This document shows, in pieces, positions 20,932 to 63,935 of a stretch of 64,000 bases of DNA. How positions within the stretch are numbered: the first letter of the stretch is position 1; each line of letters starts with the position of its first letter. Location: contig OX422189.1 in the NCBI GenBank assembly GCA_949130485.1, positions 9,842,492 through 9,906,491 on the forward strand, read 5' to 3'. The position numbers were made by a program, and so were the translations under genes. This stretch comes from Agelas oroides. Its lineage: Eukaryota > Porifera > Demospongiae > Agelasida > Agelasidae. The notes beneath the pieces were generated by a model, which saw only the letters and a program-made list of their open reading frames with translations, was not told the origin of the DNA and did not search any database.

Positions 20932-20939
20932 CACTGTGC

Positions 20940-36493: not shown

Positions 36494-39400
36494 TTACTCC
36501 CATTCATAGTCCCAGACAGGACCACAAGTGCGTGTTTTATCATACGGAGTCCACATTGTCTTCTTGGCATGGACCTGAAGCGCCTCCATCAGCTCTACTG
36601 CCTCTGTTATCTTCTCTGGAGAACCACTAAAAGTTTTCTGCATAACACGCAAGAAATTTCGATAGACCTGGTGGAATGCTCTTGCCTGTGTGTGACATTC
36701 TGTGCCAGGCACAATGAACTCTTTGCTTGGATTGTCCCTCATAGGCCACACCCCCTGTGGATTGTATGGAATGGGATCTCCATCGTATGCATAGCCTGAT
36801 TCCGATTCAGTAAGTTTCCTTTGGCAAACAATCTCTTCAAAGCGATAGAAGTGTGCATATTGGTTGGTGGTCGCATCATTGGGGTTACACGGGCTTGCTC
36901 CTTCTCCCTGTTCAACTATTTGATTAATAGCCTGTTCTGCTGATTCGAGATCTGTGACTTTGTACAATTCACCAACATCCTCGGATTCATTCCATGGCCA
37001 CTCTACCTGTTTATCTACACTGGTTGGATCACAGATGCCGTCTCCTAGAGTCTTCATGCACGACAGTATTTCTTCATAGAACTGTCCAATAGTGTTCAAT
37101 GTGCATTCAGGCTTATGCTGAGCAACATATGTCAATGCAGGTGTTTCCAAACCCATGCAATTAGAGTAGACATGGGACAGTACAAATTTCTTCAGACTAA
37201 CCATAAGGTTTGGCAGAACACCACCAGGAAGACCTACTGTGGGGTATGATGGAACAATGTGTGGATAGTCAATTTTCACATTTCCTCCAACTGCAATTAA
37301 CATGTTTGCTGCTTGAGCAAAGTGGAGCATCTCTTGCATTGCAATATTTCTTATGACACGATAGGCTTCAGTGTTACAATCTTCCATGATGGAATATAGA
37401 GAAGTCAGGTAGAGAGGAAGTGTGGAAAACTCAAGCTGTATGGCCAGCTGAAGTTGCTCTCTCAGGTTCTCCACAGAACAGATCGGAAAAAATGGGATTG
37501 TTTTCAACAAGTTTGAAATTTCAGTCTTTTCTTGCTCACTTTCAAAACCAAAGAGAGGGCGAGGAGGATGCTCTGCAGCTAAACTAAAATTTATGGGGTG
37601 CTCATTGCAAACAATCTTTTTGAAATATTGGTCCTCTTCCTCTTGGTAAACTTTGAAGGGAATGTACTTACGCCGGCATATAGGTGGCCAAAAATAATCG
37701 GGAGGTGTTGCTCCTCTCAGTGGGGTGGGAGAGGGGGGAGGTGTCTGGCAGATAGGATCAGATGGCTGACCTGGAGGACTGCTAGATGTGGCATCATAAA
37801 GAGGATTTTGATTTTTAAGCCATTCTAGTATCATTAAACACTTTGTGGGAGATAAGTCCCTTGTGACTGGCATGTAGTTTGGATCAGTTGTTTCTTTCTC
37901 AAATGAGATACGTAGAAGCTCCTTATTGTGAGAACTAGTGACTTCTGTGAAGTTACTTAAGTCTAGGATGGTTCGCATGATGTAATGAAGGTGATGGAAC
38001 TGCTCAAAAATTGGTTGCACATGGTCCACCCAAGTATAAGGGCGTGTGTAGTTTGTTGTGGAGAAAGCAAGAAATGTGAGCAGAACATTAGAGTGTTGAT
38101 TGTCAGGCGGCTTACAATTTCCTGGTACAGCCACGCAGAAATAGAAATTGTACACTTGGCCATCAATCGGTAGGGTGAATATGCCATTACTGTCAGGCTC
38201 TGTGCTCTGCTCTATGTCTTGCTTGTTGTGATTCCGTACATCCTGTCCGGTTTGTTGTGATTCTGTATATCCTGTCCGGTTTGTTGTAGATTCCTGTGAA
38301 CTCACCTGAGTTATGTTATATTCATAACACCTCTGAGTTGTGTTATAGAGACGAGGAAATGGAATATGAGAAGCCACTTGAAAAGTGAAGGTGACGAGTC
38401 CATTGCTGTCTGTCTGCTTTGTATCTTGGACAGCTGCCACTCCATCTCTAGGGAGAACCGTTAACACTGGTGGTATTCCAACCCTCACAGTGGCACCTTC
38501 GACAGGTTTTCCATACCTTGTAACAAGAAGAGTCATGTCACTAGTATCCTTCACTGAGTACTGTAGTCTATCCAGGTAGTATCCTGTAGGACGAATGTAG
38601 TAGAGTGACTCTTTCAAAAAGAGCTGCACTTTGTTATTCGTACTCTTCAGGGCTGGAAATGCTTCCCTCAGAGGATAAACGTTATCTCCAACCATTTCAT
38701 CTTGGTGAATTTCCTTTACAATTACTAGTAATGAAGCGTCCAGAGTGCCACTGTCAATCTTTTGTTCTATAATACCTCCACGATTTTGTAGGTTGGGATC
38801 AAGGTATGGAATGGAGTCACCAAAGATGGAGACACTACCATCATCCCCTAAGACTCCAAGCCAGAGCTCACCCAAGTCAATTGGCTTATTATCACCTGTA
38901 ATTGAAAATGCATTGCTAATATCCATTACTAAAACATTCCGAGATTCGTCTATTGTGAATGGAGCATAATTGGTCCAAGGGTGTGTCTGATTGTTAACCT
39001 CTGACCCCTTGCATGGGTGGCCTGGTGGGAATATAACGGCTGGCTTGGTTGTCTCAAGGTGTCTATCTCCACCTGCGTTAAGAGGCTCCCCAGACTTGGC
39101 AACTCCGATAGTCCCAAGTATACTTCCAATAGTAAAGGTTTCCTCACTGTACAGATAGAGAGTAATGGACACTGCCAGATCACCTGTGCAGTCTGGACAT
39201 CTTGTGGCTTCTTGAAGCCCTTGAATCACTGGTGAGGATGACCACAATATGTCTGTTATTCTGCTTGTACTTAGCGTTCCATATTGGCCAATATGGTGTC
39301 GAGGCACCGCACACTTCGACTTGTTCCACATTTCACGAACAATTACAGATAGCGACCACTTTCCCCAAAGTACTGTCTCGTCTCCTACCCTTAATCCAAT

Positions 39401-41859
39401 ATCCAGTCCATAAAGAGTAGATTTTTGAAAATCAACATCGAGATCAACAATTTTTGCCAGAGGCCTTTCCTGGTTGCTAAACAGTTCTGCCCCAAGCAGT
39501 GGACTGTTAGATACTTTCTTGCCATCTCGATCCACCACAGACGTGACAACAGTATCAACTAACTCCCATTCTGAAGTTCCATTGAAGTTCCATTCCTTCG
39601 GTGAATAGAGTGGGAGACTGGGGTCAAAGTTACATTTCCAATTGTTGCGTGAATTGACGTCTGCCCTGTACTTTCCACGGAAGTGTATGCGAGGCACATC
39701 CAGGTAAGAGCTATTCACCGTATCCAGGCTGAGGGATAAGTGTAAGTTATATTATGATAATGCCTATGTATGAAGTGCAGGAGAAAATCACATTTGCTTA
39801 TTTCTATCACTCATGCAATTACTTTGTCCATGGATAATACACTGCTTATATTAGTATGAATTATCCATGCAATGGCTGATCTAAGATGGGGCCTAGAGTC
39901 CCCTCTCCTCTCCTCCCCTTCTGTAACTCCCCAAAATCACTCAAAATCACACAACAACAGTCAAAAAGTAGCTGCTAAGAGACTCCATTCCATGGATAGA
40001 CATCATAGGCTACCGAAACTAAGATGCTTTTCTGACTTTCTTCCAACCAAGCCCACTCATTTCTTCTTGGCTAGATCCACACCCTCCCATGCTTTGACTA
40101 AACCACACTTGCATACAATCGGCGCACTGCACTGGTGAGGCACGTACCCCATGCCCTGCTACAAGTTAGGTAATCGCATGTATGCAGTCTCCTACCCTCT
40201 CTTCACCTCGCTGTTTGTGACTTTGCCGCCGCCTATACTACGTGCACGCATACCTATACCGGTAGCTGATTCGGTCTCGATTCGGCGATGCCAGTCACCT
40301 AGAAATAGCCAAGACTGACCTTACCCTTAGAGGATCTAAAAAATAAAATAATTTCCATGAGGGAGCATGCCCCCAGACCCCCCTAGTTGCTTTTGCGCTC
40401 CACGCAGTAGCGCGCCGGAAATTTTTGGGGTTGCCACGCCCACTTTCGGTCACGTGAACGCATTCATACAAAATAATAGCTGGATGGCCGAACCGAGGGG
40501 TCCGTCACAACAGAAATCTCGTACACTGTCCGACGGTGTTGTTTTGGTTAACTATAACTTTAACTAAATACATTTAGTATGGCCTTTTTAAAACTTAGTT
40601 AACCAAAACTACAACTAACTAAAATTTTTTGCCAAGCTGGGAACTATAACTAAAATATCCAAGAACATACAAGAAGAAACCTGTCGGCAGAAATCCAAAC
40701 TGAAATCCAGAAATCCACTGTGAAATCCAGAAATCCACTCTGAAATCCGAAATCTACGTGAAATCCAGTGGATTTCGAAATCTCGTACGCCGAAGTAGCC
40801 TCGTACCCAGGCCGTTAATTAGGAAAAACGGCCTGGCAACTTACCCGGGTTCAAACTGTATACGGATGTGACGTAAAAAAGATTACAGCTGCACCCATAC
40901 AAGCCATGAATATTGGATAATGCATGTGATATTTAATCGTAGCCACGTGACTGTTCGTAATTGTGCAAGCGCGTTGTTGTTGCCAGTAGACTCGTTACAG
41001 GCTTATATTGGATGGTTACTGTCTTACTTGTCATCTGTAGACGAACTGCTTGCAGTAGACTCGCTCTTGCTCACCGATGTCGATGTGTCCGACTGACAGT
41101 AAGTACTAAACTAGTACCTGACACTGCTACTCTCGAACTGGTCCTTTTTTATAAAGAATCCGTTTTGTCCGCAGGCACTGTAGTTGTTGCACACAAGTCA
41201 ACGGAAGGAGTTCGAACAAAAGCGTCATTCCAAGCGCTAGCGGTACCACGGGACGGGTATATTAATACTGTGATGTATTTATGACGCAATTAAAATTCTG
41301 TACAACTGTCACGTGAAGTGTTCTGAAATCTGATTGGTACTGACAACTCCAGTGCAGCGGAAGTCAACAGTTTGAACTCGGAGAAGTTGCCAGGCCGTTT
41401 TTCCTAATTAACGGCCGGGGTACGAGGCTAACGCCGAAGGGGCGCTGTGGCGGACTCCTCGGGCCGAACTGAAAATCTCGAAGCAACTCTAGGCCTAGTC
41501 AAACGTCTGGAGATCAGTTCCTTAACTGATACGTGAGTGTGTAACTGTGCCTGGTTGTTGTTGCTGCATGCCACTGCTGCATAATCATTTGATGGACTCG
41601 TGCAGTTATGTACGCAAAATACATTACTAGCCGCCAAAGGGGGGTGCATTTGCACCCCCCTTACCCCCCCTAAATCCGCCACTGCACAGAAACCAGACAC
41701 TTGGAAAGGTGTTTATACATTAAGTGTCAATCTGCAGTTCTGGATACACAATGACATACATGTATAAATTAAACATGGTGTACAGTTCCTCATTTTTTTA
41801 GGTTACACATACTTGGACTGAAGTGTGCTCAGCAGGATCAGAAGAAGAAGACTCTTCAT
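36494..41859 (-). CDS. secreted VioB-like protein with ferritin-like domain, copy 1
   Basis: Exon 1 is 41859-41813 (47 nt, MKSLLLLILLSTLQS plus two bases); exon 2 is 39728-36494. The phase-2 junction gives N then LDTVNSSYLDVPRIHFRGK. The model has 1,093 residues with a 2.1-kb intron. The N-terminal DVPRIHFRG and C-terminal ferritin-like block match bacterial VioB, the iminophenyl-pyruvate dimer synthase of violacein synthesis, over a similar length. Putative metal ligands are E782 (QLEFSTLPLY), E815 and H818 (MQEMLHFAQAANML), with a later HFYRFEEIV. The N-terminal hydrophobic run predicts secretion, and many NxS/T sites and cysteines fit that. The main exon has no ATG of its own near the start, so the upstream exon is needed. 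Whether it has VioB-type activity is unknown; no VioA-like oxidase is in the window. Copy-specific short repeats lie at about 38230-38290. Confidence 0.8.
39840..40795. other. intron of VioB-like copy 1, non-coding
   Basis: Contains short direct repeats of GAAATCCA (40690-40780) and low-complexity sequence. No exon was recognised between the signal-peptide exon and the main exon. Confidence 0.4.
40796..41430. mobile_element. 635-bp TAGCCTCG-ended transposon, possible parent of the small foldbacks
   Basis: Terminal inverted repeats of about 65 bp (TAGCCTCGTACCCAGGCCGT inward), with a perfect 9-bp target duplication ACGCCGAAG (40787-40795 and 41431-41439). The interior has a 107-codon open frame (40961-41284, +) with no recognised domain. 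It lies in the intron of the first VioB-like gene. Confidence 0.85.
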
Positions 41860-42751: not shown

Positions 42752-42760
42752 GTGAAATCA

Positions 42761-44010
42761 ACAGTTCCGTACATTCACGCGTGGGCACGCCCCCCAAATT
42801 TTTCCTGCGGTTACCTGCAGTACAGGCGCGTGAGGCACATAATCATGCGGGCGCGGCGGGCGCTTATGGGGCCTAAGTATGAGGTTGTGCTTGTATGTAT
42901 GTAATGTATGTCTGTCTTTCCTCTTTGAAAGCACAAACATTAACTAGGGGAATGCAGTGCATTGTGGGGCGAGCGTGAGGGAGTGTATGGTGCATTAGCG
43001 TTCCATGTGCATTACCTTTTCCCACTTCTGTGACAATAGTCTCATTTCCAGGCCTTCCCCACCTCCAACTGTAGCCTGTAAAACTACAGGTGGATAACAC
43101 CTGGGGAAGAGGCTACGCAGGATAGGTGGAGAACGCCTGGGGAAGAGGCTACGTAGGATAGGTGGAGAACGCCTGGGGAAGAGGCTACGTAGGATAGGTG
43201 GAGAACGCCTGGGGAAGAGGTTATGTAGAATATCAAATGTATGCCAGTGTTCGTGGAGCAATATAACTTGGGTATGTCCTAATCTTGGGTTCATTGTACA
43301 CACTCTGTGTCATTACTGCATGTGGAATGATAGCTACTGCTGCAGACAACAAGGTCTCAAAGCATTTGGAAGCGGTTTGAAGAGTTGCAAGTTAAGTGTG
43401 AGGGTTGAACATCTTGGTACAAATACATTCCGCTGGTTTCCTGTGTCTCAAACTTGTTCACATCTTGGCACTGTCTCCTCAAGTCACGGTCTATAGTGCA
43501 TGGATATTTGCTGAGCACATACAGCTGTGGAATCAGAATTCTCTCAGCTTTGGGGCATGGAGTCAGGGTGGTGTAGACTATAATATTGTCAGCCCTTTTC
43601 ACAGCACAATTACTGGAGTTGTGGTAAGAGGGGGGGGGTTAAGAAGCTCTTCCGTAGCTGTTGCTCACGATGGTTATTTGGTCCAGTCACGCAGACCTCT
43701 CTGGTTCGGGTCCTCACAAGCTAATCGCTCTGTCTTTAATACACTGAGCACTCCCCGTTGGCGGCAGTGTCACGCAGCATGTTAATAATCAGTCTCCGTC
43801 TTGCTAGTCGAGCCTCCCTTTCCTCACCGTTTTCAAGTCCCTGTTACGTTGGTTCTCACTGTTCAGCCTTTCTGCCCTGCTAGTCTTCTCTCTTGAACAA
43901 CAGTGGTCAACATGCATCAACATGCAATGTGGAAATATTGCATCGCGCACAAATGGGGCAGGATGTGTATATACGGAATACGCACGTACCATATATATAT
44001 ATATATATAA
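42761..44010. other. non-coding stretch with a tandem repeat
   Basis: Between the MITE and the large repeat array. A copy of the array's end motif (GTGGGGCGAGCGTGAGG) lies at about 42964, a 36-bp repeat at 43087-43230 and an (AT)n run at 43991-44009. Open frames at 43357-43785 show no domain. Confidence 0.5.
43087..43230 (+). repeat. 36-bp tandem repeat, four copies
   Basis: The unit AGGTGGAGAACGCCTGGGGA plus AGAGGCTACGTAGGAT is repeated with few changes. It contains the GAGGCTA end of the foldback family, so it may have grown from a MITE end. Confidence 0.8.
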
Positions 44011-45150
44011 ACTAGAGGAATGCAGGGCATTGTGGGGCGAGCCTGAGCAAGCAGTATGCCAAGGACTACAATTGCGCATGCGCAGTTCGTACACACGCGC
44101 GCGTACCCCTTCGCACTTGTGTCGAAGTTGGCGTGGCGTTTAGTAAGAAGTAAAGTGCTGTTTGCTTACTATGCCTCATCCAAGTGTAGAAATGACAAAG
44201 GCAGCGTTGTACATTATTCACACAGGAATGACCTCGTAATTGAAAGTCTTCAATTCTTGGCCAACCCACATCTAGTTTTCTGCTTAGGGGTGAGAAACAA
44301 TGAATTGGTTTGGAAGAGGCTAACATGCAATTTTTTGTGTACACAATCACCGTTATGGTTTATCAATTTTTGTTGTAAACAACATGACATTACACTAATA
44401 ACAATATAAAAGTGATGACATAATATTTCCTGTTTGCATGAGAGCTTACATTGGAGTTTCTATCAACCAAATGAGCTTCAAATGGTAGTTTTTTTACACA
44501 TTGCCAGTGAGTTAGTGGATGTTGGTTGGTTCAGTTTTTCCATTAGGGCTGTGTCATTGCTATCTCAACACCATTGTTGGTAGCCACAAAAGTTTTCCAT
44601 TTTTTCTATGACATTTTCTCTGAGAGTTTCTACTCCAGGTTGCTGAACGTCGTGCTGGCTAGAAAAGTCTATATTTGCATCATCATTGTCTCTGGCAGAT
44701 TGTGTAGTGGAGACAATTGTGGCAAATGCTTCCCATTCTTGCTTACCTGGGTAGCCTCGTTCCCAGGCTCTCCCCGCTAAGAAGGGCCCTCCCCCCTCTT
44801 AGTGGGGAGAGCCTGGGAATTAAAGATCACCTGACGGATGGTGTCCTTTTCCTCCTTGACGTCGGCTTCTTCTCTTGCGGTCACGGAAGCCATGTATGCT
44901 AATGCGCTATTGGAAGCCCTACATACTTCATGCGACCAAGCGCGGCGCGCGGGTGATTCTCTTGCGGTCACGGAAGCCATGTATGCGAATGCGAAGCCCT
45001 ACATACTTCGTGCGACCAAGCGCGGCGCGCGGGTGACGGTCGTACGATAATGATAATAATGATAATAATGATAATAATGATAATACATATATGAAATCTC
45101 CCAGTTGTACCGTCTATGTGGGGCTCGCTCAGGCTCGCCCCAATAAATAT
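44011..45150. repeat. repeat unit A of a four-copy array
   Basis: Starts ACTAGAGGAATGCAGGGCAT, then GTGGGGCGAGCCTGAGC; ends GTGGGGCTCGCTCAGGCTCG plus CCCCAATAAATAT. The end motifs are inverted copies of each other. It contains a foldback MITE (from about 44753, right end deleted), an 85-bp internal direct repeat ending GACCAAGCGCGGCGCGCGGG, and a GATAAT microsatellite. It is most like unit B. Confidence 0.85.
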
Positions 45151-46350
45151 ACTAGATGAATGCAGGGCATTGTGGGGCGAGCCTGAGCAAGCAGTAGGCC
45201 AAGGACTACAATTGCGCATGCGCAGTTCGTACACACGTGCGCGTACCCTTTCGCACTTGTCGAGGTGTCGAAGTTGGCGTGGTGTTTAGTAAGAAGTAAA
45301 GTTGCTGTTTGCTTACTGTGCCTCATCCAAGTGTAGAAATGACAAAGGCAGCGTTGTACATTATTCACACAGGAATGACCTCGTAATTGAAAGTCTTCAA
45401 TTCTTGGCCAACCCACATCTAGTTTTCTGCCTAGGGGTGAGAAACAATGAATTGGTTTGGAAGAGGCTAACATGCAATTTTTTGTGTACACAATCACCGT
45501 TATGGTTTATCAATTTTTGTTGTAAACAACATGACATTACACTAATAATGATATAAAAGTGATGACATAATATTTCCTGTTTGCATGAGAGCTTACATTG
45601 GAGTTTCTATCGACCAGATGAGCTTCAAATGGTAGTTTTTTACACATTGCCAGTGAGTTAGTGGATGTTGGTTGGTTCAGTTTTTCCATTAGGGCTGTGT
45701 CATTGCTATCTCAACACCATTGTTGGTAGCCACAAAAGTTTTCCATTTTTTCTATGACATTTTCTCTGAGAGTTTCTACTCCAGGTTGCTGAACGTCGTG
45801 CTGGCTAGAAGAGTCTATATTTTGCATCATCATTGTCTCTGGCAGATTGTGTAGTGGAGACAATTGTGGCAAATGCTTCCCATTCTTGCTTACCTGGGTA
45901 GCCTCGTTCCCAGGCTCTCCCCACTAAGAAGGGCCTTCCCCCCTCTTAGTTGGGAGAGCCTGGGAACGAGGCTACACCTGGGTACAGTTCACTGAAATCA
46001 CACAGCTATTGCTTGAATTCTTTGTTGTTAAAGATCACCTGACGGATGGTGTCCTTTTCCTCCTTGACGTCGGCTTCTTCTCTTGCGGTCACGGAAGCCA
46101 TGTACGCTAATGCGCTATTGGAAGCCCTACATACTTCATGCGACCAAGCGCGGCGCGCGGGTGATTCTCTTGCGGTCACGGAAGCCATGTATGCGAATGC
46201 GAAGCCCTACATACTTCGTGCGACCAAGCGCGGCGCGCGGGTGACGGTCGTACGATAATGATAATAATAATAATAATAATAATAATGATAATACATATAT
46301 GAAATCTCCCAGCTGTACCGTCTATGTGGGGCTCGCTCAGGCTCGCCCCA
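45151..46350. repeat. repeat unit B
   Basis: Same order of parts as unit A, with a complete internal MITE (about 45899-45974) and the extra sequence after it that unit A has lost. Ends in the same CTCAGGCTCGCCCCA motif. Confidence 0.85.
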
Positions 46351-47620
46351 ACTAGATGAATGCAGGGCATTGTGGGGCGAGCCTGAGCAAGCAGCATGCC
46401 AAGGACTAAAATTGTGCATACGCAGTTCGTATACACGCGTGCCCTTTCGCACTTCTTGTCGAGGTGTCGAAGTTGGCGTGGCGTTTAGTAAGAAGTGAAG
46501 TTGCTGTTTGTCTACTGTGCCTCATCTGAGTGTATAAATGACAAAGGCAGTGTTGTACATTATTCACACAGGAATGACCTCGTAATTGAAAGTCTTCAAT
46601 TCCATTGGCCAACCCACATCTAGTTTTCTGCTTAGGGATGAGAAACAATGAACTGATTTGGAAGAGGCTAACATGCAATTTTTTGTGTACACAATCACCG
46701 TTATGGTTTTATCAATTTTTGTTGTAAACAACATGACATTAGTGTGATATAAAAGTGATGACATAATATTTCCTGTTTACATGAGAGCTTACATTGGAGT
46801 TTCTATTGACCAAATGAGCTTCAAATGGTGTATGGTGGTAGTTTTTATACACATTGCCAGTGAGTTAGTGGATGTTGGTTGGTTCAGTTTTTCCATTAGG
46901 GCTGTGTCATTGCTATCTCAACACCATTGTTGGTAGCCACAAAAGTTTTCCATATTTTCTGTGACATCATATGGTTTGAAGTTGCAAGGCCTATTAAAGA
47001 TCACATGAATCATTCCATTTTCTCTGAGAGTTTCAACTCAAGGTTGCTGAACGTCGTGCTGGCTAGAAGAGTCTACATTTTGCATCATGATTGTGTCTGG
47101 CAGATTGTGTAGTGGAGACAACCGTGGCAAATGCTTCTCATTCTTGCTTACCTGGGTAGCCTCGTTCCCAGGCTCTCCCCGCTAAGAAGGGCCCTCCCCC
47201 CTCTTAGTGGGGAGAGCCTGGGAACGAGGCTACACCTGGGTACAGTTCACTGAAATCACACAGCTATTGCTTGAATTCTTTGTTGTTAAAGATCACCTGA
47301 CGGATGGCGTCCTTTTCCTCCTTGACGTCGTCTTCTCTAGCGATCACGGAAGCCATGTACGCTAATGCGATATTGGAAGCCCTACATCTTCGTGCGACCA
47401 AGCGCGGCGCGCGGGTGATTCTCTTGCGGTTACGGAAGCCATGTATGCGAATGCGATATTGGAAGCCCTACATACTTCGTGCGACCAAGCGCGGCGCGCG
47501 GGTGACGGTCGTACGATAATGATAATAATAATAATAATAATAATGATGATAATACATATATGATTTCGTCCAGCTGTACCGTCTATGTGGGGCTCGCTCA
47601 GGCTCGCCCCAATAAATATA
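46351..47620. repeat. repeat unit C
   Basis: More diverged from A and B, closely matching D. It has extra text (ATATGGTTTGAAGTTGCAAG region, about 46970-47030) absent from A and B, and the same MITE, internal direct repeat and microsatellite. Confidence 0.85.
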
Positions 47621-47740
47621 TAGACAAATTTTCGTTTTATCCACAAGTGTGGGGCTCGCTCACGCTCGCCCCAATAAAACTGAAATAGCTACACAAAATG
47701 AGGCTAGGGGGCACAAAGAAAACTGAAGTACTCAGATGCA

Positions 47741-47804
47741 AGTGTACAACAGCATATAGGTATGACAACAGTGAAACCTCACAGTGGCACACTGCTGACT
47801 CCCT
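47741..47804 (+). pseudogene. tiny Kelch exon fragment
   Basis: Reads YDNSETSQWHTADSL-like codons in the plus orientation after sequence that elsewhere follows Kelch genes (AAAATGAGGCTAGGGGGCAC). It is wedged between repeat units C and D. Confidence 0.6.
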
Positions 47805-48975
47805 ACTAGATGAATGCAGGGCATTGTGGGGCGAGCCTGAGCAAGCAGCATGCCAAGGACTAAAATTGTGCATACGCAGTTCGTATACACGCGTGCCCTT
47901 TCGCACTTCTTGTCGAGGTGTCGAAGTTGGCGTGGCGTTTAGTAAGAAGTGAAGTCGCTGTTTGTCTACTGTGCCTCATCCGAGTGTATAAATGACAAAG
48001 GCAGTGTTGTACATTATTCACACAGGAATGACCTCGTAATTGAAAGTCTTCAATTCCGTTGGCCAACCCACATCTAGTTTTCTGCTTAGGGATGAGAAAC
48101 AATGAACTGATTTGGAAGAGGCTAACATGCAATTTTTTGTGTACACAATCACCGTTATGGTTTTATCAATTTTTGTTGTAAACAACATGACATTAGTGTG
48201 ATATAAAAGTGATGACATAATATTTCCTGTTTACATGAGAGCTTACATTGGAGTTTCTATTGACCAAATGAGCTTCAAATGGTGTATGGTGGTAGTTTTT
48301 ATACACATTGCCAGTGAGTTAGTGGATGTTGGTTGGTTCAGTTTTTCCATTAGGGCTGTGTCATTGCTATCTCAACACCATTGTTGGTAGCCACAAAAGT
48401 TTTCCATATTTTCTATGACATCATATGGTTTGAAGTTGCAAGGCCTATTAAAGATCACATGAATCATTCCATTTTCTCAGAGAGTTTCAACTCAAGGTTG
48501 CTGAACGTCGTGCTGGCTAGAAGAGTCTACATTTTGCATCATGATTGTGTCTGGCAGATTGTGTAGTGGAGACAACTGTGGCAAATGCTTCTCATTCTTG
48601 CTTACCTGGGTAGCCTCGTTCCTAGGCTCTCCCCGCTAAGAAGGGCCCTCCCCCCTCTTAGTGGGGAGAGCCTGGGAACGAGGCTACACCTGGGTACAGT
48701 TCACTGAAATCACACAGCTATTGCTTGAATTCTTTGTTGTTAAAGATCACCTGACGGATGGCGTCCTTTTCCTCCTTGACGTCGTCTTCTCTAGCGATCA
48801 CGGAAGCCATGTACGCTAATGCGATATTGGAAGCCCTTCATCTTCGTGCGACCAAGCGCGGCGCGCGGGTGATTCTCTTGCGGTTACGGAAGCCATGTAT
48901 GCGAATGCGATATTGGAAGCCCTACATACTTCGTGCGACCAAGCGCGGCGCGCGGGTGACGGTCGTACGATAATG

Positions 48976-49006
<31 letters not shown>

Positions 49007-49072
49007 TAATACATATATGATTTCGTCCAGTTGTACCGTCTATGTGGGGCTCGCTCAGGCTCGCCCCAATAA
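47805..49072. repeat. repeat unit D
   Basis: Nearly identical to unit C by eye along its whole length; ends GCTCGCCCCAATAAGTATAT. The C/D and A/B pairs suggest two rounds of duplication. Confidence 0.85.
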
Positions 49073-49104
49073 GTATATAATATTATATACCTCTACCGTG
49101 TAGG

Positions 49105-50056: not shown

Positions 50057-53000
50057 TTACTCCCATTCATAGTCCCAGACAGGACCACAAGTGTGCGTTT
50101 CATCATATGGAGTCTGCATTGTCTCAATGGCCTCTTGCTGAAGGGCATACATTTGCCCTACTGCGTCGCTTATCTTCTCTGGAGAACCACTATAAGTTTC
50201 CTGCATAACACGCAAGAAATCTCGATAGGTCTCGTGAAATGCTTTTGCCTTTTCGTAACATTCGGTGCCAGGCACAATGCTCTCTGCGCTTGGATTGTTT
50301 ATCATAGGCCACACCCCCTCTGGATCGTATGGAATGGGATCTCCATCATATGCATAGCCTGATTCCGATACAGTAAGTTTCCTTTGGCAGACAATCTCTT
50401 CAAAGCGGTAGAAGTGTGCGTATTGGTCAGTGGTTGCATCATTGGGGTTACATGGGCTTGCTCCTTCTCCCTGTTCAACTATTTGATTAATAGCCTGTTC
50501 TGCTGATTCGAGATCTGTGACTTTGTACAATTCACCAACATTTTCACTCCAAGACCACTCTACCTGTTTATCTACACTGCTTAGATCAAAGATGCTGTCT
50601 CCTTTTCCTTCTAGAAATTTCATGCACAATGTTATTTCTTTATAGAACTGTCCGATAGTGTTCAAAGTGTATTCAGGTTCAGGCCGAGCAACAGATGTCA
50701 GCATAGGAGTTTCCACACTCATGAAATTATAGTAGACATGGGACAGTTCGAACTTCTTCAGACTAACCGTAAGGTTTGGCAGAACACCACCAGGAAGACC
50801 TACTGTGGGGTACGATGGAACGACTTCTGGGTAGTCAATTTTCACATTTCCTCCAACAGCAATTAAGATATTTGCTGCTAGAGCAAAGTGGTTCATCTCT
50901 TGCAATGCAATATTTCTGATCTGTTGATAAGCTTCAGTGTTATAACCTTCCTTAATGGAATATAAAGAAGTCAGGTAGAGAGGAATGGTAGCAAACTCAA
51001 GCTGTATAGCCAGCTGAAGTTGATCTCTCAGGTCCTCCACAGAACAGATCGGAGTATATTGGATTGTTTTCATCAATTTTGAAATTTCAGTCTTTTCTTG
51101 CTCACTTTCAAAACCAAAGAGAGGGCGAGGAGGATGCTCTGCAGCTAATCTAAAAGTTGGAAACCGCGGATTGTAAAAAATCTCTCGGAAATAGGGGTCC
51201 TCTTTCTCTGGGTCAACGTTGAAGGGAATGTTGTTACATTGGCACCTAGGTGGATTGAGAAGTGGTGCTGCTTTCAACAGTGTGGGTGAGGGAGGTGTCT
51301 GGCAGATAGGATCAGACGGTGGACATGGAGGACTGCTAGATGTGGCATTATAAAGAGGATTTTGAAGCCATTCCAGTATCATTGAACGCTTTGTGGGAGA
51401 TAAATCCCTTGTGACTGGCATGTAGTTGGGATCAGTGATTTCTTTACTAAATGAGATACGTAGAAGCTCCTTATTGTGAGAACTAGTGACTTCTGTGAAG
51501 TTACTTAAGTCTAGGATGGTTCTCATGTTGTAATGGAGGTGATAGAACTGCTCAAAAATTGGCTGCACATGGTCCACCCAAGTATAAGGTCGTGTGTAGT
51601 TTGTTGTGGAGAAAGCAAGAAATGTGAGCAGAACATTAGAGTGTTGATTGTCAGGCGGCTTACAATTTCCTGGCGGTACATCCACACAGAAATAGAAATT
51701 GTACACTTGACCATCGATTGGTAGGGTGTGTACGTCGTTACTGTCAGGTTCTGTGTTCTGCTCTTGCTTGTTGTGTTTCTGTTCAGACTTCGGTGCACAT
51801 TGTTGAGGTTTGATATAGCGGCGAGGAAACGGAATTGGAGAAGCCACTTGAAAAGTGAAGGTGACGAGTCCATTGCTGTCTGTCTGCTTTGTATCTTGGA
51901 CAGCAGCCACTCCATCTCTAGGAAGAACCGTTAACACTGGTGGTATTCCAACCCTCACAGTGGCACCTTCGACAGGTTTTCCATACCTTGTAACAAGAAG
52001 AGTCATGTCACTTGTATCCTTCACTGAGTAATGTAGTCTATCCAGGTAGTATCCTGTAGGACGAATGTAGTAGAGTGGCTCTTTCAAAAACAGCTGCACT
52101 TTGTTATTCGTACTCTTCAGGGCTGGAAATGCTTCCTTCAGAGGATAAACGTTATCTCCACCCACTTCACCTTCGAGAATTTCCTTTACAATTACTAGCA
52201 ATGAAGCGTCTAGAGTGCCACTGTCAATCTTTTGTTCTATAATACCTCCACGACTTTGTAGGTCGGGATCAAGGTATGGAATGGACTCACCAAAAATAGA
52301 CACACTACCATCATCCCCTAAGACTCCAAGCCAGAGCTCACCCAAGTCAATTGGCTTATTATCACCTGTAATTGGAAATGCATTGCCAATATCCATTACT
52401 AAAACATTCCGAGATTCGTCTATTGTGAATGGAGCATAATTGGTCCAAGGGTCTGTCTGATCGTCAACCTCTGACTCCTTGCATGGGTGGTCTGGTGGGA
52501 ATATAATGGCTGGCTTGGTTGTCTCAAGGTGTCTATCTCCACCTGCGTTAAGAGGCTCTCCAGACTTGGCGACTCCGATAGTCCCAAGTATACTTCCAAT
52601 AGTAAAGGTTTCCTCACTGTACAGATAGAGAGTAATGGACACTGCCAGATCACCTGTGCAGTCTGGACATCTTGTCGCTTCTTGAAGCCCTTGAGTCACT
52701 GGTGATGATGACCACACAATGTCTGTTATTCTGCTTGTACTTAGCGTTCCACGTATGGCATCATGGTGGTGTTGAGGCTCCGCACACTTCAACTTGTTCC
52801 ATACTTCACGAGTAATTACAGATAGCGACCAATTTCCCCAAAGTACAGTCTCGTCTCCTACCCTTAATCCAATATTCAGCCCATAAAGAGTGGATATTTG
52901 AAAATCAACATCAAGATCGACAATTTTTGCCAGAGGCCTTTCCTGGTTGCTAAACAATTCTGCCCCAAGTAGTGGACTGTTAGATACTTCCTTGCCATCT

Positions 53001-55950
53001 CGGTCCACCACAGACATGACAACAGTATCAATTAACTCCCATTCCGAAGTTCCATTGGAGTTCCATTCCTGCGGTTGATAGAGTGGGAGACTGGGGTCAA
53101 AGTTACAGTTCCAATTGTTGCGTGAATTCACGTCTGCCCTGTACTTTCCACGGAAGTGTATGCGAGGCACATCCAGGTAAGAGCCATTCACCGTATCCAG
53201 GCTGAGAGGTAAGTACAAGTTATACATGTGATAAAACCAAGGGCTTTTATACAGCCCTGCAGAAACATATATTGACACCTACGTATTGACACCTACGTAT
53301 AGTAAATACACAATGTCATGTGATTACTTGCACATGTAGTGAATATCTGACTTGTAGCAAGGTATGAGCCTCTTTGTGAGCGTCTGGTTTCCATGGTAAC
53401 ACATTATATATTGGGATAAAAGAACAACATGCAATTGCAGTGAGTGAGTGTGTGCACAATCAAAGCCTCTGACTTACAGTAGCAAATCACTCACGTGTGT
53501 GACGTAGAAGGGTAGAGAGGACTTAATTGAGCATAGGCGGATCGTCGATGTGCCCACGCACGTAGTTGATCGATAATTGACAGTTCACGTAGCTGTGTTT
53601 TAGTAGGAGCCCGTTCTGACAGTTTTTTCGAAACAATAAGCGCAGAGAAAACTTGAGCAAAGCCTAGGAAAGGGCCGCCTTGGCGTTTAATAGCGCCTTG
53701 AAAGCCATTCTCCGGGGTGTACAGCGGTCAGTTTGCCAGGTAAGCGAGTATGTTAGCGTGATTTTCGAATGTACGGGTCTGTGTATGCTCACCATAGCTT
53801 TCCGTACTTCTAGGTAATGTAGCATAGTGCCATCTAGTCCCATTCTGTCGGCAATATAAAAGCTATCGCAACTGAACAAATGTATTTTGTCCATACAGCG
53901 TGGGCGAGTTTCATTCGTTCGCCCACATGTAATTAAGTTCTCTCTACCTATGACGTTTCTCACGTGATAAATTTTACCAGGCTCTCCCCTTTCCTTTCGA
54001 TTTTTCGTTCGCGCACGTGGAGAGCCTGGGAATGAGGCTAGTGATTTGCTACTCCCCCACCATGCAACCTGAAACCACTCTCTGTCTAAAGAGTCACTGT
54101 AGCTACAATGTATTCAGTGAAACTTAGCAGGTAGAGCCATCCTATCCTTGTTCCCAGGCCCCGCCCAGCTTTCCGTCGCTTGCAGTACGGAACATCCCGC
54201 TTTACCGTACTAATAAGCGATGGAAAGCTGGGCGGGGCCTGGGAATGAGGCTAGAGCCATCCTAGGTTCTAGTGTACATTAGGTATGTGAACACTGTAGC
54301 AAAAGCCAGGTGTCACTAATCACTGGACTGAAGTGGACTGGACTGGACTCGTCAGAAATAAGTTAATAAACCACCGGAAACAAAATTGAGCATACGTACA
54401 AGACCAGCCGCTGACAACAACAGATCAATGGTATTGGGCTTATTGGATGCTGTGTAAATCCTTGCTCTCACCCCGGACTTGCATCCTGTAACTGGCCGTG
54501 AGTAAACACTCTTTCTAGCGAGTGACTCATTGGGGTGACCTGCGTACTCTGACCATTGACCGAGCGAGTAGAGTACAATTGTGAGAGCATTCATGCAAGC
54601 CCCTTGGCATGCACACAATCTATGTAACCAATCTTGCACAATTGCACACGTAGTCTCCCTCCTAGGCCCTCCATACACGCGTAGTACAAGCGATGGAAAG
54701 CTGTGCGGGGCTTGGGAATAAGGCCAGGAGAGCTGTTGGTTTAGTCTCGCGTAGCCTGACCAGCGAGACTACTGTTGGCTACATGTAACAAGTACCCTGT
54801 TGACATAGCAGGACTATAAACCCTGTGTTCCATCGTGTTTGATTTTTGAAAGTCCTTAATTTTGTTTCCGGTGGTTTATTAACTTATTTCTGACGTTTTC
54901 ATGAGTCCAGTCCTAGGGGGGGTAGGACAAGCTCACGTGCACTCAGATATCTGATGATGTAATGCCTAGTGAAATCGTCTGATTCCATGCGCTGCAGCCT
55001 TTATTGAGTACTTTTTGTGCAGTTTTAGAGAGTAGTTTGCCGCGCTAAAGCTAAACATGCACTTTGGTTTCCTGCTGCAATCGGCAGCATGGAGTTTTCT
55101 CGGCAAGGAAGGTGAGCTCACCCATATCCAGGGATTTCTCCGACTTTCTGACAATGTAGGGATGTTCTACCCTTAGAACAAAAGTGTTCCAAGCATTGAA
55201 CCCCATTGAACCCCGGCTAACTTGGATGCTGCGAGCGCTTACTTGTTTAATCTCTGTAAATCCCCGTGAACTTTCCGCATACCTAAGAATGGAATGTAAT
55301 TTTTTTACGTGCTTCTTAGAGCTTGTCCTACCCCCCCTGGTCCAGTCCAGTCCAGTCCACTTCAGTCCAGTGATTAGTTACGCCCCTCCCGCAAAAGCCT
55401 GCCTCTTTACTGCTGTGTTTTCACAGCTAAGCATATTCACTGCTGATTGCCTATTCATACTGTCCAGATGGCAGGTATAGAAACCATATGGGAGTTGCAC
55501 ACTCTAGCTGTAATAAACTGTTGGTTCATTTCACCCGTAAACACTCTACAGGTCAGTACTGAATTTGATGCCTAGTGCTTCATCTCCAATAGAAAGGGTA
55601 CCACAGAAACCAGACACTTAGAAAGGTATCTATAGACTAACTGCATGTCAATCTGCAGTTCTGGATACACATATAAAATACTTTAGTCTAGACCTCGAAC
55701 AACCTGTCTCTCAGGCCGAAGATTGTGTGGGTACAAAATCTATTTTGTAAAAGCATGTCTCCAGTCTTGTATTGCCTGAAGAAGACCCCTTGGTGTTGAA
55801 ATGTTGCAAAAAGTATGATGTAGTTTTGTGCATTCGAAGATTGCTCAGATTATTCACTCACAAATAGCTATCTACGCCTCAGTATTTTTTAGGTTACACA
55901 TACTTGGACTGAAGTGTGCTCAACAACATCAGAAGGAGAAGACGTTTCAT
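50057..55950 (-). CDS. secreted VioB-like protein with ferritin-like domain, copy 2
   Basis: Exon 1 is 55950-55904 (MKRLLLLMLLSTLQS plus two bases); exon 2 is 53201-50057, joined in phase 2 to LDTVNGSYLDVPRIHFRGK. The model has 1,063 residues with a 2.7-kb intron. The ferritin-like signature is kept: QLEFATIPLYLTSLYSI, then IALQEMNHFALAANIL, then HFYRFEEIV. The variable linker after RYIKPQQCAP is about 30 residues shorter than in copy 1. The C-terminus (TYRDFLRVMQETYSG) is the most diverged of the three. An ATG inside the intron at 53227 is in frame but not conserved in the other copies. The intron holds a MITE with a 9-bp duplication and a nested foldback. Confidence 0.8.
54143..54253. mobile_element. 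foldback MITE with 9-bp duplication
   Basis: A 111-bp palindrome (TATCCTTGTTCCCAGGCCCC ... GGGGCCTGGGAATGAGGCTA) flanked by perfect GAGCCATCC repeats (54134-54142 and 54254-54262), in the intron of VioB-like copy 2. Confidence 0.85.
54315..55378. mobile_element. 1.06-kb nested foldback element
   Basis: Outer inverted ends ACTAATCACTGGACTGAAGT at 54315 and their complement ending at 55378. Inside, GTCAGAAATAAGTTAATAAA (about 54352) is inverted at about 54857-54892, and TAGGACAAGCTC (about 54923) is inverted at about 55320. No coding frame was recognised. Confidence 0.65.
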
Positions 55951-57585: not shown

Positions 57586-57589
57586 TTCT

Positions 57590-59136: not shown

Positions 59137-62100
59137 TTACTCCCATTCATAGTCCCAGACAGGACCACAAGTGTGCGTTTTATCATATGGAGTCCACATC
59201 GTCTTCTTGGCGTGGACCTGAAGCGCCTCCATCAGTTCTACTGCCTCTGTTATCTTCTCTGGAGAACCACTGAAAGTTTTCTGCATAACACGCAAGAAAT
59301 TTCGATAGACCCGGTGGAATGCTCTTGCCTGTGTGTGACATTCTGTGCCAGGCACAATGAACTCTTTGCTTGGATTGTCCCTCATAGGCCACACCCCCTG
59401 TGGATTGTATGGAATGGGATCTCCATCGTATGCATAGCCTGATTCGGATACAGTAAGTTTCCTTCGGCACACAATTTCTTCAAAGCGGTAGAAGTGTGCA
59501 TATTGGTCGGTGGTTTCATCGTTAGGGTTAAATGGGCTTGCTCCTTCTCCCTGTTCGACAATTTGATTAATAGCCTTTCTTGCTGATGTGAAATCTGTGA
59601 CCTTGTACAATTGACCAACATCCTCGGATTCATTCCATGGCCACTCTACCTGTTTATCTACACTGGTTGGATCATAGATGCCGTCTCCTAGAGTCTTCAT
59701 GCAAAACTGTAATTCTTTATAGAACTGTCCGATAGTGTTTAGTGTGTATTCAGGTTCAGGCCGAGCGACATATGTTAATGCAGGAGTTTCCACACCCATG
59801 AAATTAGAGTAGACATGGAACAGTTCGAATTTCTTCAAGCTAACATAAAGGCTTGGCAGAACACCACCAGGAAGACCTACTGTCGGGTACGATGGAACGA
59901 TGTCTGGATAGTCAATTCTCACATTTCCTCCAACCGCAATTAACATGTTTGCTGCTTGAGCAAAATGGAGCATCTCTTGCATTGCAATATTTCTCATCAG
60001 TTGATAGGCTTCAGTGTTACAATCTTCCATGATGGAATATAGAGAAGTCAGGTAGAGAGGAATAGTAGCAAACTCAAGCTGTATGGCCAGCTGAAGTTGC
60101 TCTCTCAGGTCCTCCACAGAACAGATCGGAACAAATGGGATTGTTTTCAACAAGTTTGAAATTTCTGTCTTTTCTTGCTCACTTTCAAAACCAAAGAGAG
60201 GGCGAGGAGGATGCTCTGCAGCTAAAATAAAAGTTGGAAACCGCTGATTGTAAAAAATCTCTCGGAAGTACGGGTCCTCCTTCTCTGGGTCAACTTTGAA
60301 GGGAATGTTCTCAAGTAGGCACCTAGGTGGCTTAAAATGATCGGGAAGTGTTGCTCCTCTCAGTAGGGTGGGAGAGGGAGGTATCTGGCAGATAGGATCA
60401 GATGGCTGACCTGGAGGATGGCTAGATGTGGCATCATAAAGAGGATTTTCAAGCCATTCTAGTATCATTAAACGCTTTGTGGGAGATAAATCCCTTGTGA
60501 CTGGCATGTAGTTTGGATCAGTTATTTCTTTAGCAAATGAGATACGTAGAAGCTCCCTGTTGTAAGAGCTAGTGACTTCTGTGAAGTTGCTTAAGTCTAG
60601 GATGGTTCGCATGATGTAATGAAGGTGATGAACCTGTTCAAAAATTGGTTGCACATTGTCCACCCAAGTATAAGGACGTGTGTAGTCTGTTGTGGTGAAA
60701 GCAAGAAATGTGAGCAGAACATTCGAGAGTAGACTGTCAGGTGGCTTACAGTTTCCTGGTACATCCACGCAGAAATAGAAATTGTACACTTGGCCATCGA
60801 TTGGTAGGGTATGTATGTCATTACTGTCAGTCTCTGTGTTCTGCTTTACGTCTTGCTTGTTGTGTTTCCGTACATCCTTTCCTGACAGAGTTCCCTGGTT
60901 TGTTGTAGATTCCTGTGTACACGGTTGAGGCGTGATATAGCGACGAGGAAATGGAATTTGTGAAGCCACTTGAAAAGTGAAAGTGACGAGTCCATTGCTG
61001 TCTGTCTGCTTTGTATCTTGGACAGCAGCTATTCCATCTCTAGGAAGAACAGGGAACACTGGACCAACGTTCACAGTGGCACCTTCGACAGTTTTTCCAT
61101 ACCTTGTAACAAGAAGAGTCATGTCACTTGTGTCCTTCACTGAGTACTGTAGTCTATCCAGGTAGTATCCTGTAGGGCGAATGTAGTAGAGTGACTCAAT
61201 TAAAAACAGCTGCACTTTGTTATTCGTACTCTTCAGGGCTGGAAATGCTTCCCTCAGAGGATAAACGTTATCTCCACCCACTTCACCTTCGAGAATTTCC
61301 TTTACAATTACTAGCAATGAAGCGTCTAGAGTGCCACTGTCAATATTTTGTTCTATAATACCTCCACGATTTTGTAGGTCTGGATCAAGATATGGAATGG
61401 ACTCACCAAAAATAGAGACACTACCATCATCCCCTAAGACTCCAAGCCAGAGCTCACCCAAGTCAATTGGCTTATTATCACCTGTAATTGGAAATGCATT
61501 GCTAATATCCATTACTAAAATGTTCCGAGATTCGTCTATTGTGAATGGAGCATAATTGGTCCAAGGGTCTGTCTGATCGTTACCCTCTGACTCCTTGCAT
61601 GGGTGGTCTGGTGGGAATATAATGGCTGGCTTGGTTGACTCAAGGTGTCTATCTCCACCTGCGTTAAGAGGCTCCCCAGACTTGGCGACTCCGATAGTCC
61701 CAAGTATACTTCCAATAGTAAAGGTTTCCCCACTGTACAGATAGAGAGTAATGGACACTGCCAGATCACCTGTGCAGTCTGGACATCTTGTGGCTTCTTG
61801 AAGCCCTTGAATCACTGGTGATGATGACCACACAATGTCTGTTATTCTGCTTGTACTTAGCGTTCCATATATGGCATCATGATGTTGAGGCTCCGCACAC
61901 TTCAACTTGTTCCACATTTCACGTACAATTACGGATGGCGACCACTTTCCCCAAAGTACAGTCTCGTCTCCTACCCTTAATCCAATATTCAGCCCATAAA
62001 GAGTGGATATTTGAAAATCAACATCGAGATCAACAATTTTTGCCAGAGGCCTTTTCCGGTTGCTAAACAGTTCTGCCCCAAGCAGTGGACTGTTAGATAC

Positions 62101-63935
62101 TTCCTTGCCATCTCGGTCCACCACATACGTGACAACAGTATCAATTAGCTCCCATTCCGCAGTTCCATTGGAGTTCCATTCCTGCGGTTGATAGAGTGGG
62201 AGACTGGGGTCAAAGTTACAGTTCCAATTGTTGCGTGAATTCACGTCTGCCCTGTACTTTCCACGGAAGTGTATGCGAGGCACGTCCAGGTAAGAGCCAT
62301 CCACCGTATCCAGGCTGAGGGGTAAGTGTAAGTATGCATGATAAAAACAAGGACTCTATACCATATAGCGGGGAGCATGCCCCCAGACCCCCCTAGATAC
62401 TTCTGCGCTCCACCCAGTACCCCACGGTTTTCAGAAATACAGTGTGCCCATGCTGTGTCCTGGCATCGTCGCCAGTGACCTGGCTATGCCACTGTAGCAG
62501 GGTATGAACATTTTTCCAAGCATCTGGTTTTAATGCATGGTAATACATCATGTATGAGTCAAGAAGCAACATGCGATGTTGTGAGTGAGTGTGCATGAAA
62601 TCAGTGAAAAGTTGCAGTGAGAAAGCTGTGACTTACCCTGTCTTAAGGTGGCGGGGAAGTCTTTCGGCGGAGGTTAACGAAAACATAAACTTGGGTTACA
62701 GTCAGGACCAGGGTTACTCCTAGTTTCAGGGTTAGGGTTTGCTTTAGGGAAATCTTGCTTTGCCTAATTTTAAAAAGGGTTTAGTGGCTCATTAATATAT
62801 TCATGAACCCAAAATTGCCACTCGATGGGCGCCTCTACACACTCACTCTAGGTAGCGTCCTATCCACCAATGTATCTCAAATCAATCTGTGCCAGCTTTT
62901 GTTCAGAGCTACTCTCAAAGTCAGGCTAGACTCGTGTTTGTCACTACTCTTGGAATGGACAACTTTGACTGCACCAAAATGAATGCACATTTCAAAAAAT
63001 TCACAGCTTGTCTACGGGAGTGGCTCATTCACGAGTGGAAGCAAGCATTACTAGCCCCACCTCTCCCCCTTATGTCGCTAAACAACTCACGGTTCTGTTC
63101 CACACACAACTCCTCTGGAGCTTTCTTCTCTACGGCAGCATGGTACCAACGATATATTGCGCATTCTAGTTAAAGCTCAGCCCGGCACTCGGAGCACCAG
63201 GCCACGGTCACCTACTAGGCTTGGCATACGATCGCAAGACCTGGGCCTACCCAGTGAGTCCAGTCTTGGCCACTGTAGCCTTTCTGCTGCTTCTAGACAC
63301 AAGCTAGCTTTCACAAGCAGGCATTACGCACTACTCACAGCTACTGACACTACAGCACTCTACTAAAACTCCTCTGTTTTTTTTTGTTTTTTTTTTGTTT
63401 TTTAAGTCGATCTAAGCTTATCTTCAAAGTTCCGACCACTACATGAGGGGTTCCACCAGGCCACATCTTAACTAACTTAATTATAAACTGATTATTGGAT
63501 GTCAATGCCAACAGGAAATGGGGAAAATCCCCAATTTTACGGACAGTGAACGGATGAAGACTCCCAAAACGGACTGTGCGCTAAATGTTTACAAAGACAA
63601 AGAATTCTATCAGCTTGGATTCCAGGTTTGTTGACCTTGAAAATGCAGGGTTCCCTGCCACCTTAAGAGTTGCTGTACGGCTGTAGCTACACTGTGTTCA
63701 TGTCATGTAAACACTCTACCAAGCCTGTACTGAACTTGATGCTTATAATAGTGCTTGATCTCCAATAAGAAAAATGAGTACCACAGAAACCAGACACCTG
63801 GAAAGCTGTTTATAGATTAAGTGTCAATCTGCAGTTCTGGATATACATAAATTAAACATGGTGCACAGTTCTTTTAGGTTACACATACTTGGACTGAAGT
63901 GTGCTCAGCAGGATCAGAAGAAGAAGACTCTTCAT
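59137..63935 (-). CDS. secreted VioB-like protein with ferritin-like domain, copy 3
   Basis: Exon 1 is 63935-63889 (MKSLLLLILLSTLQS plus two bases); exon 2 is 62314-59137, joined in phase 2 to LDTVDGSYLDVPRIHFRGK. The model has 1,074 residues with a 1.6-kb intron. Ferritin-like signature: QLEFATIPLYLTSLYSI, IAMQEMLHFAQAANML, HFYRFEEIV. The N-terminal part follows copy 2 (LPLYQPQEWNSNGT; DPEKEDPYFREIFYN), while the last 70 residues match copy 1 almost exactly (RNFLRVMQKTFSGSPEKI). N-glycosylation sequons and cysteines are frequent. A different upstream ATG (62686) also fits the phase but is not conserved, so the signal-peptide exon is preferred. Confidence 0.8.
63378..63404. repeat. poly-T tract
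   Basis: An interrupted T homopolymer in the intron of VioB-like copy 3. Confidence 0.7.
63514..63625 (+). other. unassigned exon-like open stretch
   Basis: After a CCAACAG acceptor, a clean open frame reads EMGKIPNFTDSERMKTPKTD then CALNVYKDKEFYQLGFQ before a GTTTGT donor-like site. I do not recognise it. It lies in the intron of VioB-like copy 3 on the other strand and may be a transposon gene fragment. Confidence 0.3.

What the first reader, a model, noticed from the sequence alone, without database searches (positions are those of the whole stretch)
36494..63935. Three tandem animal genes for secreted VioB-like, ferritin-fold proteins
Each copy has the start (DVPRIHFRG), length and C-terminal ferritin-like block (E...ExxH, HFxRFEE) of bacterial VioB, which couples two aryl-pyruvate imines in violacein synthesis. 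Here the genes are spliced, triplicated and predicted secreted. Bisindole alkaloids are known from sponges, so a role in aromatic dimer chemistry is an attractive but untested idea. A non-enzymatic or metal-binding role is equally open.
Basis: partly seen in the sequence, partly recalled or inferred. Interest (0 to 1): 0.9.

Follow-up and report, generated by a model that had tools for sequence, protein, structure and literature searches.

The report
Animal genes resembling bacterial pigment enzyme
An animal genome, probably a sponge's, carries a family of proteins, at least some with an export signal, built along their length like VioB, the bacterial enzyme that joins two tryptophan-derived molecules to make the pigment violacein, and the bacterial relatives often sit beside genes tied to exporting such molecules, so animals may do related chemistry outside their cells.

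Summary
Three tandem minus-strand genes (41859-36494, 55950-50057, 63935-59137) each have a 47-nt hydrophobic leader exon and one exon of 1047-1077 codons; the genome has nine PF12902 loci on six contigs. VioB kinship is real but distant: hhalign E=5e-32 over 778 collinear columns; N-terminal, middle and ferritin-like segments match VioB separately, reversed VioB does not. They fail the VioB equivalog test (17-18 against 1250 bits). Six candidate metal ligands (4 Glu, 2 His) and a YMP..R.L box are invariant in 44 of 44 rows, VioB included. Cysteine is threefold that of bacterial relatives; glycosylation sequons exceed chance in the family, not in the three window copies. [quoted passage not shown] 5 of 8 plasmid records repeat this. 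Best reading: a secreted, probably diiron, VioB-superfamily enzyme acting on aromatic metabolites outside the cell. Superfamily membership is near certain; the chemistry is inferred. Structure prediction was off, so metal-site geometry is untested.

The parts
41813..41859 (-). copy 1, coding part of exon 1: leader MKSLLLLILLSTLQS plus 2 bases of the joining codon; donor GTATGT follows
36494..39728 (-). copy 1, exon 2 with stop codon (1077 full codons)
36827..37453 (-). copy 1, PF12902 ferritin-like domain, E 8.8e-48
   Evidence: residues 767-975 of the stop-to-stop frame converted to bases
55904..55950 (-). copy 2, coding part of exon 1: leader MKRLLLLMLLSTLQS
50057..53201 (-). copy 2, exon 2 with stop codon (1047 full codons)
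50390..51019 (-). copy 2, PF12902 domain, E 3.2e-52; holds candidate ligands E735, E768, H771, E830, E912, H929 (exon-2 numbering)
63889..63935 (-). copy 3, coding part of exon 1: leader MKSLLLLILLSTLQS
59137..62314 (-). copy 3, exon 2 with stop codon (1058 full codons)
59470..60096 (-). copy 3, PF12902 domain, E 3.6e-48
   Evidence: converted to bases

Best explanation
SHOWN: a metazoan multi-gene branch of the VioB superfamily, three members of which have a hydrophobic leader exon. The full-length members are single-chain counterparts of a bacterial pair: an N-terminal protein beginning SYL..PR..F.G plus a C-terminal ferritin-like protein, which in some bacteria are also fused. INFERRED: the ferritin-like half holds a carboxylate-His metal site (E735, E768xxH771, E830, E912, H929 in copy 2), most likely diiron, which uses O2 or peroxide to oxidise and couple, or otherwise remodel, an aromatic amino-acid-derived substrate, with help of the N-terminal half and the YMPVTRDLS box. 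In bacteria substrate or product would be handed across the membrane by the ebo system. In the sponge the enzyme itself would be exported, so the reaction would occur in the ER, the mesohyl or outside. Superfamily membership about 0.95; metal-dependent enzyme about 0.6; aromatic oxidative coupling in the VioB manner about 0.35.
For: PF12902 in all 3 copies, 9 loci in the genome. Profile match to VioB E 5.3e-32 over 778 columns; from the nine animal sequences alone E 1.1e-15. Separately N part 1.5e-11, middle 7.2e-8, C part 9.9e-16, each at the matching VioB place; reversed VioB gives 0.14-0.5. Invariant in 44 of 44 rows including 2 VioB: E735, E768, M769, H771, E830, G911-E912-G913, H929, Y593-M594-P595, R598, L600. 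In the profile alignment to bacterioferritin 1nf4, E735/E768/H771 fall on E23/E56/H59, iron ligands there (recalled). 39 bacterial loci; 13 of 39 have ebo genes within 6 kb, 12 of these with both EboD and EboE. On plasmids, 5 of 8 near-full-length records have EboD within 3 kb (positions), with annotated ebo genes in Mycetohabitans and Aureibacter. A LodA/GoxA amino-acid oxidase lies beside the pair in Mycetohabitans and Symploca. Symploca's C protein carries a signal-like leader (by eye). Leader exon in 3 of 3 window copies; Cys 18.3 against 5.9 per 1000 residues in 33 bacterial relatives; sequons 58 against 32.9 +/- 5.4 in shuffles for six animal rows that are not near-copies.
Against: The TIGR04492 cut-off is missed about seventyfold in bits. 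26 of 39 bacterial loci show no ebo gene in the stretch held, though 8 of the 39 are stretches under 7 kb. In a class sample of 369 genomes the two further genomes with strong N and C matches (G118, G371) lack ebo near by, one on a 6.5-kb contig. The animal genome shows no PF01761 (EboD type) and no PF18417 (LodA_C) match. Sequon excess is absent from the three window copies themselves: 21 seen, about 20 expected. VioB, taken as cytoplasmic, also has fairly high Cys, 12.5 per 1000. SignalP was not available. No structure, metal or expression data; dN/dS 0.45-0.58 is loose. Ferritin-like folds serve many roles.
Confidence: 0.4

Rival explanations
1. Secreted metal-binding or iron-handling protein without VioB-like coupling: the ferritin-like domain stores, buffers or detoxifies iron or peroxide at the sponge surface.
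For: PF12902 is a ferritin-like fold and the family profile reaches bacterioferritin 1nf4 and 9viw; ligand set conserved; leader exon; a sub-threshold Ferritin_2 hit in copy 2, E 0.019.
Against: The long N-terminal half and the YMPVTRDLS box are conserved as in VioB, which plain iron storage would not need; no Pfam match over cut-off other than PF12902; ebo linkage of bacterial relatives points to small-molecule metabolism.
Confidence: 0.25
2. Defence or redox enzyme working with amino-acid oxidases: it consumes or tunes peroxide, or matures a quinone-cofactor oxidase, as ferritin-like genes beside lodA/lodB suggest.
For: LodA/GoxA and a LodB-like flavoprotein next to the pair in Mycetohabitans and Symploca, and next to a C-only gene in G244; PF12902 genes beside fungal lodA-like genes (PMC4417212, passages).
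Against: LodA is seen in 1 of the 39 genome loci (L052), in plasmid locus L072 and in one C-only locus; a LodB-like match alone in L024. No LodA_C family match in the animal genome.
Confidence: 0.15
3. Structural glycoprotein derived from a bacterial-type enzyme: now a matrix or adhesion component with the metal site kept only for folding.
For: Leader, high Cys, nine loci, dN/dS 0.45-0.58.
Against: Six candidate ligands invariant in 9 of 9 animal sequences across a deep clade.
Confidence: 0.12
4. Bacterial contamination or a symbiont gene misassembled into the host.
Against: Spliced leader exons, contigs of 7-26 Mb, nine members in one clade at 100/99 support, high Cys, kinase and Kelch genes in the same window.
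Confidence: 0.01

Closest known systems
Bacterial N+C pair / fused ferritin-like proteins (annotated 'hypothetical protein' + 'ferritin-like protein'; e.g. Photobacterium, Chromobacterium, Undibacterium, Mycetohabitans, Aureibacter), partly ebo-linked
   Same: Collinear homology, same start motif, same YMPVTRDLS box, same invariant ligand set
   Different: Mostly two genes, fewer cysteines; no signal prediction was run on them. The window proteins are one chain behind a leader exon, with a longer stretch before the ferritin-like domain, and belong to nine paralogous loci
VioB, iminophenyl-pyruvate dimer synthase (TIGR04492)
   Same: Order of all three segments, PF12902, invariant E/ExxH/E/GEG/H and YMP..R.L
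   Different: 15-27% identity by segment; equivalog cut-off not met; VioB lacks the Glu that follows AH..RF in most of the family
RebD / StaD chromopyrrolate synthases
   Same: Recalled as VioB relatives; not fetched or compared here
   Different: Not tested
3hl1, Caulobacter ferritin-like protein (solved structure; species recalled)
   Same: Ferritin-like domain, E 1.7e-20 with the profile; E, ExxH, IE.P and QGEG conserved
   Different: 317 residues, no N-terminal half
ebo cluster (PMC5133447, PMC6282210)
   Same: Genomic neighbour of part of the bacterial relatives
   Different: No EboD-type PF01761 match in the animal genome. Word counts for ferritin and VioB are zero in both ebo papers; passages read

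Membership tests
PF12902 Ferritin-like | Score above curated cut-off 22.3 bits | tested here: met
   163.5, 178 and 164.8 bits; 9 of 9 genome loci over the cut-off
VioB superfamily (VioB-type architecture) | Collinear homology over N-terminal, middle and ferritin-like parts | tested here: met
   with reversed-sequence control
VioB equivalog TIGR04492 | Score above 1250 bits | tested here: not met
   17.0-18.4 bits
VioB equivalog TIGR04492 | Dimerisation of indole-3-pyruvate imine | not testable with these tools
   needs an assay
VioB equivalog TIGR04492 | Partner amino-acid oxidase (vioA) and vioC-E in a cluster | tested here: inconclusive
   six other window frames scanned by Pfam are kinase, Kelch and NERD; the rest of the window and genome was not searched for vioA, C, D or E
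Carboxylate-His diiron ferritin-like enzymes | Four carboxylates and two His from four helices in one site | tested here: inconclusive
   residues invariant in 44 of 44 rows; three align with 1nf4 E23, E56, H59; geometry not testable, structure prediction off
Secreted proteins | N-terminal signal peptide and ER-type features | tested here: inconclusive
   hydrophobic leader in 3 of 3 window copies; high Cys; sequon excess in the family but not in the window copies; no SignalP; in 4 other paralogues searched, two unsupported leader candidates for L011 and none for three
Bacterial N+C family | Homology over the length of both proteins | tested here: met
   35 of 39 loci matched from residue 1-3 to at least 985 of the 1013-residue query (pieces joined)
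Bacterial N+C family | ebo genes nearby (only part of the bacterial members) | tested here: not met
   no PF01761 match in the animal genome; other ebo genes were not searched there. In bacteria 13 of 39 loci

The most novel reading that the evidence does not exclude
Animals make bis-aromatic (for example bis-indole) alkaloids with their own genes: the sponge secretes VioB-superfamily diiron enzymes that oxidatively couple tryptophan- or tyrosine-derived monomers outside the cell. In bacteria the same enzyme family works with the ebo export system as a general aromatic-coupling module, of which VioB is a specialised offshoot.
Probability: 0.15. Interest if true: 0.95.

Novelty: new variant of a known kind. 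Interest (0 to 1): 0.76.

Why it matters
Sponge alkaloids are often credited to symbionts (general knowledge). An animal-encoded, leader-bearing branch of the VioB superfamily would be a direct and testable candidate for host-made aromatic dimers. [quoted passage not shown]

Tried and rejected
Phage origin (no match to paralogue P0007 in 50,697 phage records) and viral contigs (17 pattern hits, 0 confirmed) gave nothing. A cytochrome-c-like reading of the VQPIF..MP region was dropped: no CxxCH in the bacterial frames listed, and the region aligns with VioB. Chance placing of the N-terminal similarity was tested with reversed VioB. A trp link (trpA directly before the pair in Chitinophaga) was seen once and not used. 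The Schistosoma report of PF12902 (PMC7563238, passages) discusses ordinary ferritins and was set aside. My first sequon count over nine rows (91 against 51.4 +/- 6.6) was inflated by near-copies; the recount keeps the excess for six distinct rows and removes it for the window copies. The tree does not place the animal clade among bacteria; long branches meet, so no donor is named. Papers: PMC5133447, PMC6282210, PMC9655573, PMC4417212, PMC7563238, PMC4784904, PMC4633127 and PMC8395497 were seen as passages or word counts only; Zhou 2022 (PMC9328163) and Burlinson 2013 (PMC3660686) are not held and are known only through PMC9655573 and PMC6282210. That the ebo link or an animal VioB relative is not in print rests on searches of open-licence papers only.
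Full report
What is there. The three genes exist at the stated coordinates. Each has a small exon that seems to start after a TTTTGTAG acceptor with 21 bases before the ATG, then a hydrophobic leader (MKSLLLLILLSTLQS in copies 1 and 3, MKRLLLLMLLSTLQS in copy 2), a donor GTATGT, an intron of 2.1, 2.7 and 1.6 kb in copies 1, 2 and 3, and one exon of 1047-1077 codons. The coding exons differ with dS 0.15-0.17 and dN 0.07-0.09. DNA blocks over exon 2 are 86-94% identical between copies.

Genome context. The window lies in contig 7 of a 259-Mb, 141-contig assembly; PF12902 is found at nine places on six contigs, three of them the window copies. I fetched the other six. Two (L011, L015) have one long exon like the window copies; in two (L010, L012) the N-terminal part is a separate exon; in two (L013, L014) I read only the C-terminal exon and did not identify the N-terminal ones. 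Wnt genes are present, so the host is an animal; sponge is my inference.

Kinship. Pfam recognises only the ferritin-like block over its cut-off and NCBIfam gives VioB weakly. One scan of prokaryote genomes with the nine-paralogue alignment found 39 loci that encode relatives, 35 of them matched from residue 1-3 to at least 985 of the 1013-residue query. In most the protein is split into an N gene of about 580-670 residues and a C gene of about 340-390; in nine loci used here it is one frame of about 890-980 residues (from the SYL start). The record titles span Pseudomonadota, Bacteroidota, Acidobacteriota, Myxococcota, Verrucomicrobiota, Actinomycetota and Cyanobacteria. VioB genes came from the genomes of two Chromobacterium species; the VioB family itself also rang on a Sorangium N gene, E 5.9e-9. 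The profile of 55 rows (9 animal, 9 fused, 19 N and 18 C) aligns with VioB from end to end, E 5.3e-32. To exclude that the ferritin-like part carries the rest, I cut a family alignment made without VioB into three: N 1.5e-11, middle 7.2e-8, C 9.9e-16, each at its own place in VioB, against 0.14-0.5 for reversed VioB.

Active-site reading. In an alignment of 44 rows (9 animal, 33 bacterial, 2 VioB; 6 of the 39 bacterial loci, L026, L030, L050, L052, L053 and L054, were left out as partial or awkward to pair) the columns E735, E768, M769, H771, E830, G911, E912, G913, H929 and Y593, M594, P595, R598, L600 never vary. Four Glu and two His is the make-up of a carboxylate diiron site (general knowledge). 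E735, E768 and H771 line up with E23, E56 and H59 of bacterioferritin 1nf4; that these are its iron ligands is recalled. The geometry could not be tested. No PDB chain found by sequence covers the N-terminal half convincingly.

A new link: the ebo cluster. Genes beside the bacterial pair in Undibacterium, Flavicella and Photobacterium gave Pfam hits to TatD, UbiA, DHQ synthase, the AP_endonuc_2 TIM barrel and PF01663 (not each in every locus), the make-up published for eboB-F (PMC5133447, passages). Searching five Undibacterium Ebo proteins over the 39 loci found at least one in 13 and EboD with EboE in 12. The 13 lie in Oxalobacteraceae, Flavobacteriaceae, Vibrionaceae, Chromobacteriaceae, Nitrospirillum, a Lysobacterales MAG (EboF only, at a contig end) and the cyanobacterium Symploca. 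The 11 that are in the tree form four separate clusters among rows without ebo in view; the deep branches are unresolved, so one old association with losses is as possible as several gains. Eight of the 39 are held as stretches under 7 kb. In the plasmid collection EboD has 16 records at E up to 1e-40 and the pair has 8 near-full-length records (H1-H8, found with paralogue P0007; 7 cover at least 80%, one 79%); in 5 of the 8 the two lie within 3 kb of each other, and in a sixth (Azospirillum B510, H1) on the same plasmid far apart. Annotated ebo genes follow the pair in Mycetohabitans and Aureibacter; Gloeothece shows TatD and EboD types. Against: in a sample of 369 genomes of the class of Chromobacterium subtsugae, 9 had any match; 3 had strong matches to both parts (a fourth, G237, weak pieces only), and of these only C. 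subtsugae itself, already among the 39, showed ebo genes near by. [quoted passage not shown] The words ferritin and VioB do not occur in the two ebo papers; PMC5133447 says that extra genes inserted in ebo operons were not analysed.

Other neighbours. A LodA/GoxA-type oxidase with a halogenase-like flavoprotein precedes the pair in Mycetohabitans and similar genes lie in the Symploca locus, which mirrors the VioA-VioB logic of oxidase plus coupling enzyme; this is seen in few loci. In Photobacterium a gene with a signal-like leader follows the pair; in Symploca its homologue is fused to the C protein, which so carries a leader itself. This hints that part of the bacterial system also acts outside the cytoplasm.

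Secretion in the animal. The window copies have the leader exon and 16-22 cysteines each. The nine animal proteins have 18.3 Cys per 1000 residues against 5.9 in 33 bacterial relatives, but VioB has 12.5. N-glycosylation sequons exceed shuffles in six distinct animal rows (58 against 32.9 +/- 5.4), driven by L013, L015 and L011; the three window copies show none (21 against about 20 expected). So secretion of the window genes rests on the leader and cysteines.

Origin. The nine animal sequences form one clade (100/99) in a tree whose other rows are bacterial. Branches inside the clade are long, so the ancestry is old. Where it attaches is not resolved, and other eukaryotes could not be searched.

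How it most likely works. I commit to a secreted metal-dependent oxidative enzyme for aromatic metabolites. Shown: family, architecture, invariant residues, leader exon, ebo linkage of part of the bacterial kin. Inferred: diiron, O2 or peroxide use, coupling, substrate class. Unknown: substrate source, since neither the EboD-type cyclase nor LodA_C was found in the animal genome; diet, symbionts or host metabolism could supply it.

Noticed in passing
window 27226-31327: A 20-bp tandem repeat, about 203 copies, with extreme GC skew (0.72 over 28001-32000).
   Followed up: partly
window 44003-49079: Direct repeats of about 0.2-1.3 kb, 90-99% identical, between copies 1 and 2.
   Followed up: no
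window 7571-25169: Repeated protein kinase and Kelch genes; one open frame (7571-9232) joins a kinase domain with Kelch motifs, others lie as neighbouring kinase and Kelch frames.
   Followed up: partly
window 13509-15587: A 692-residue minus-strand frame with a weak NERD (nuclease-related) hit and a P-loop-like GAPGSGKT seen by eye.
   Followed up: no
L022:3073-5913: In Chitinophaga the bacterial pair directly follows IGPS, a PALP enzyme and trpA, a possible tryptophan link.
   Followed up: no
L052:5071-6996: Cyanobacterial ferritin-like protein fused to a leader-bearing domain whose separate homologue follows the pair in Photobacterium (L021:9783-10847).
   Followed up: partly
L072:904-2445 and 7495-10556: Mycetohabitans megaplasmid: a second ferritin-like gene and a LodA/GoxA oxidase with a halogenase-like flavoprotein upstream of the pair and ebo cluster.
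   Followed up: partly
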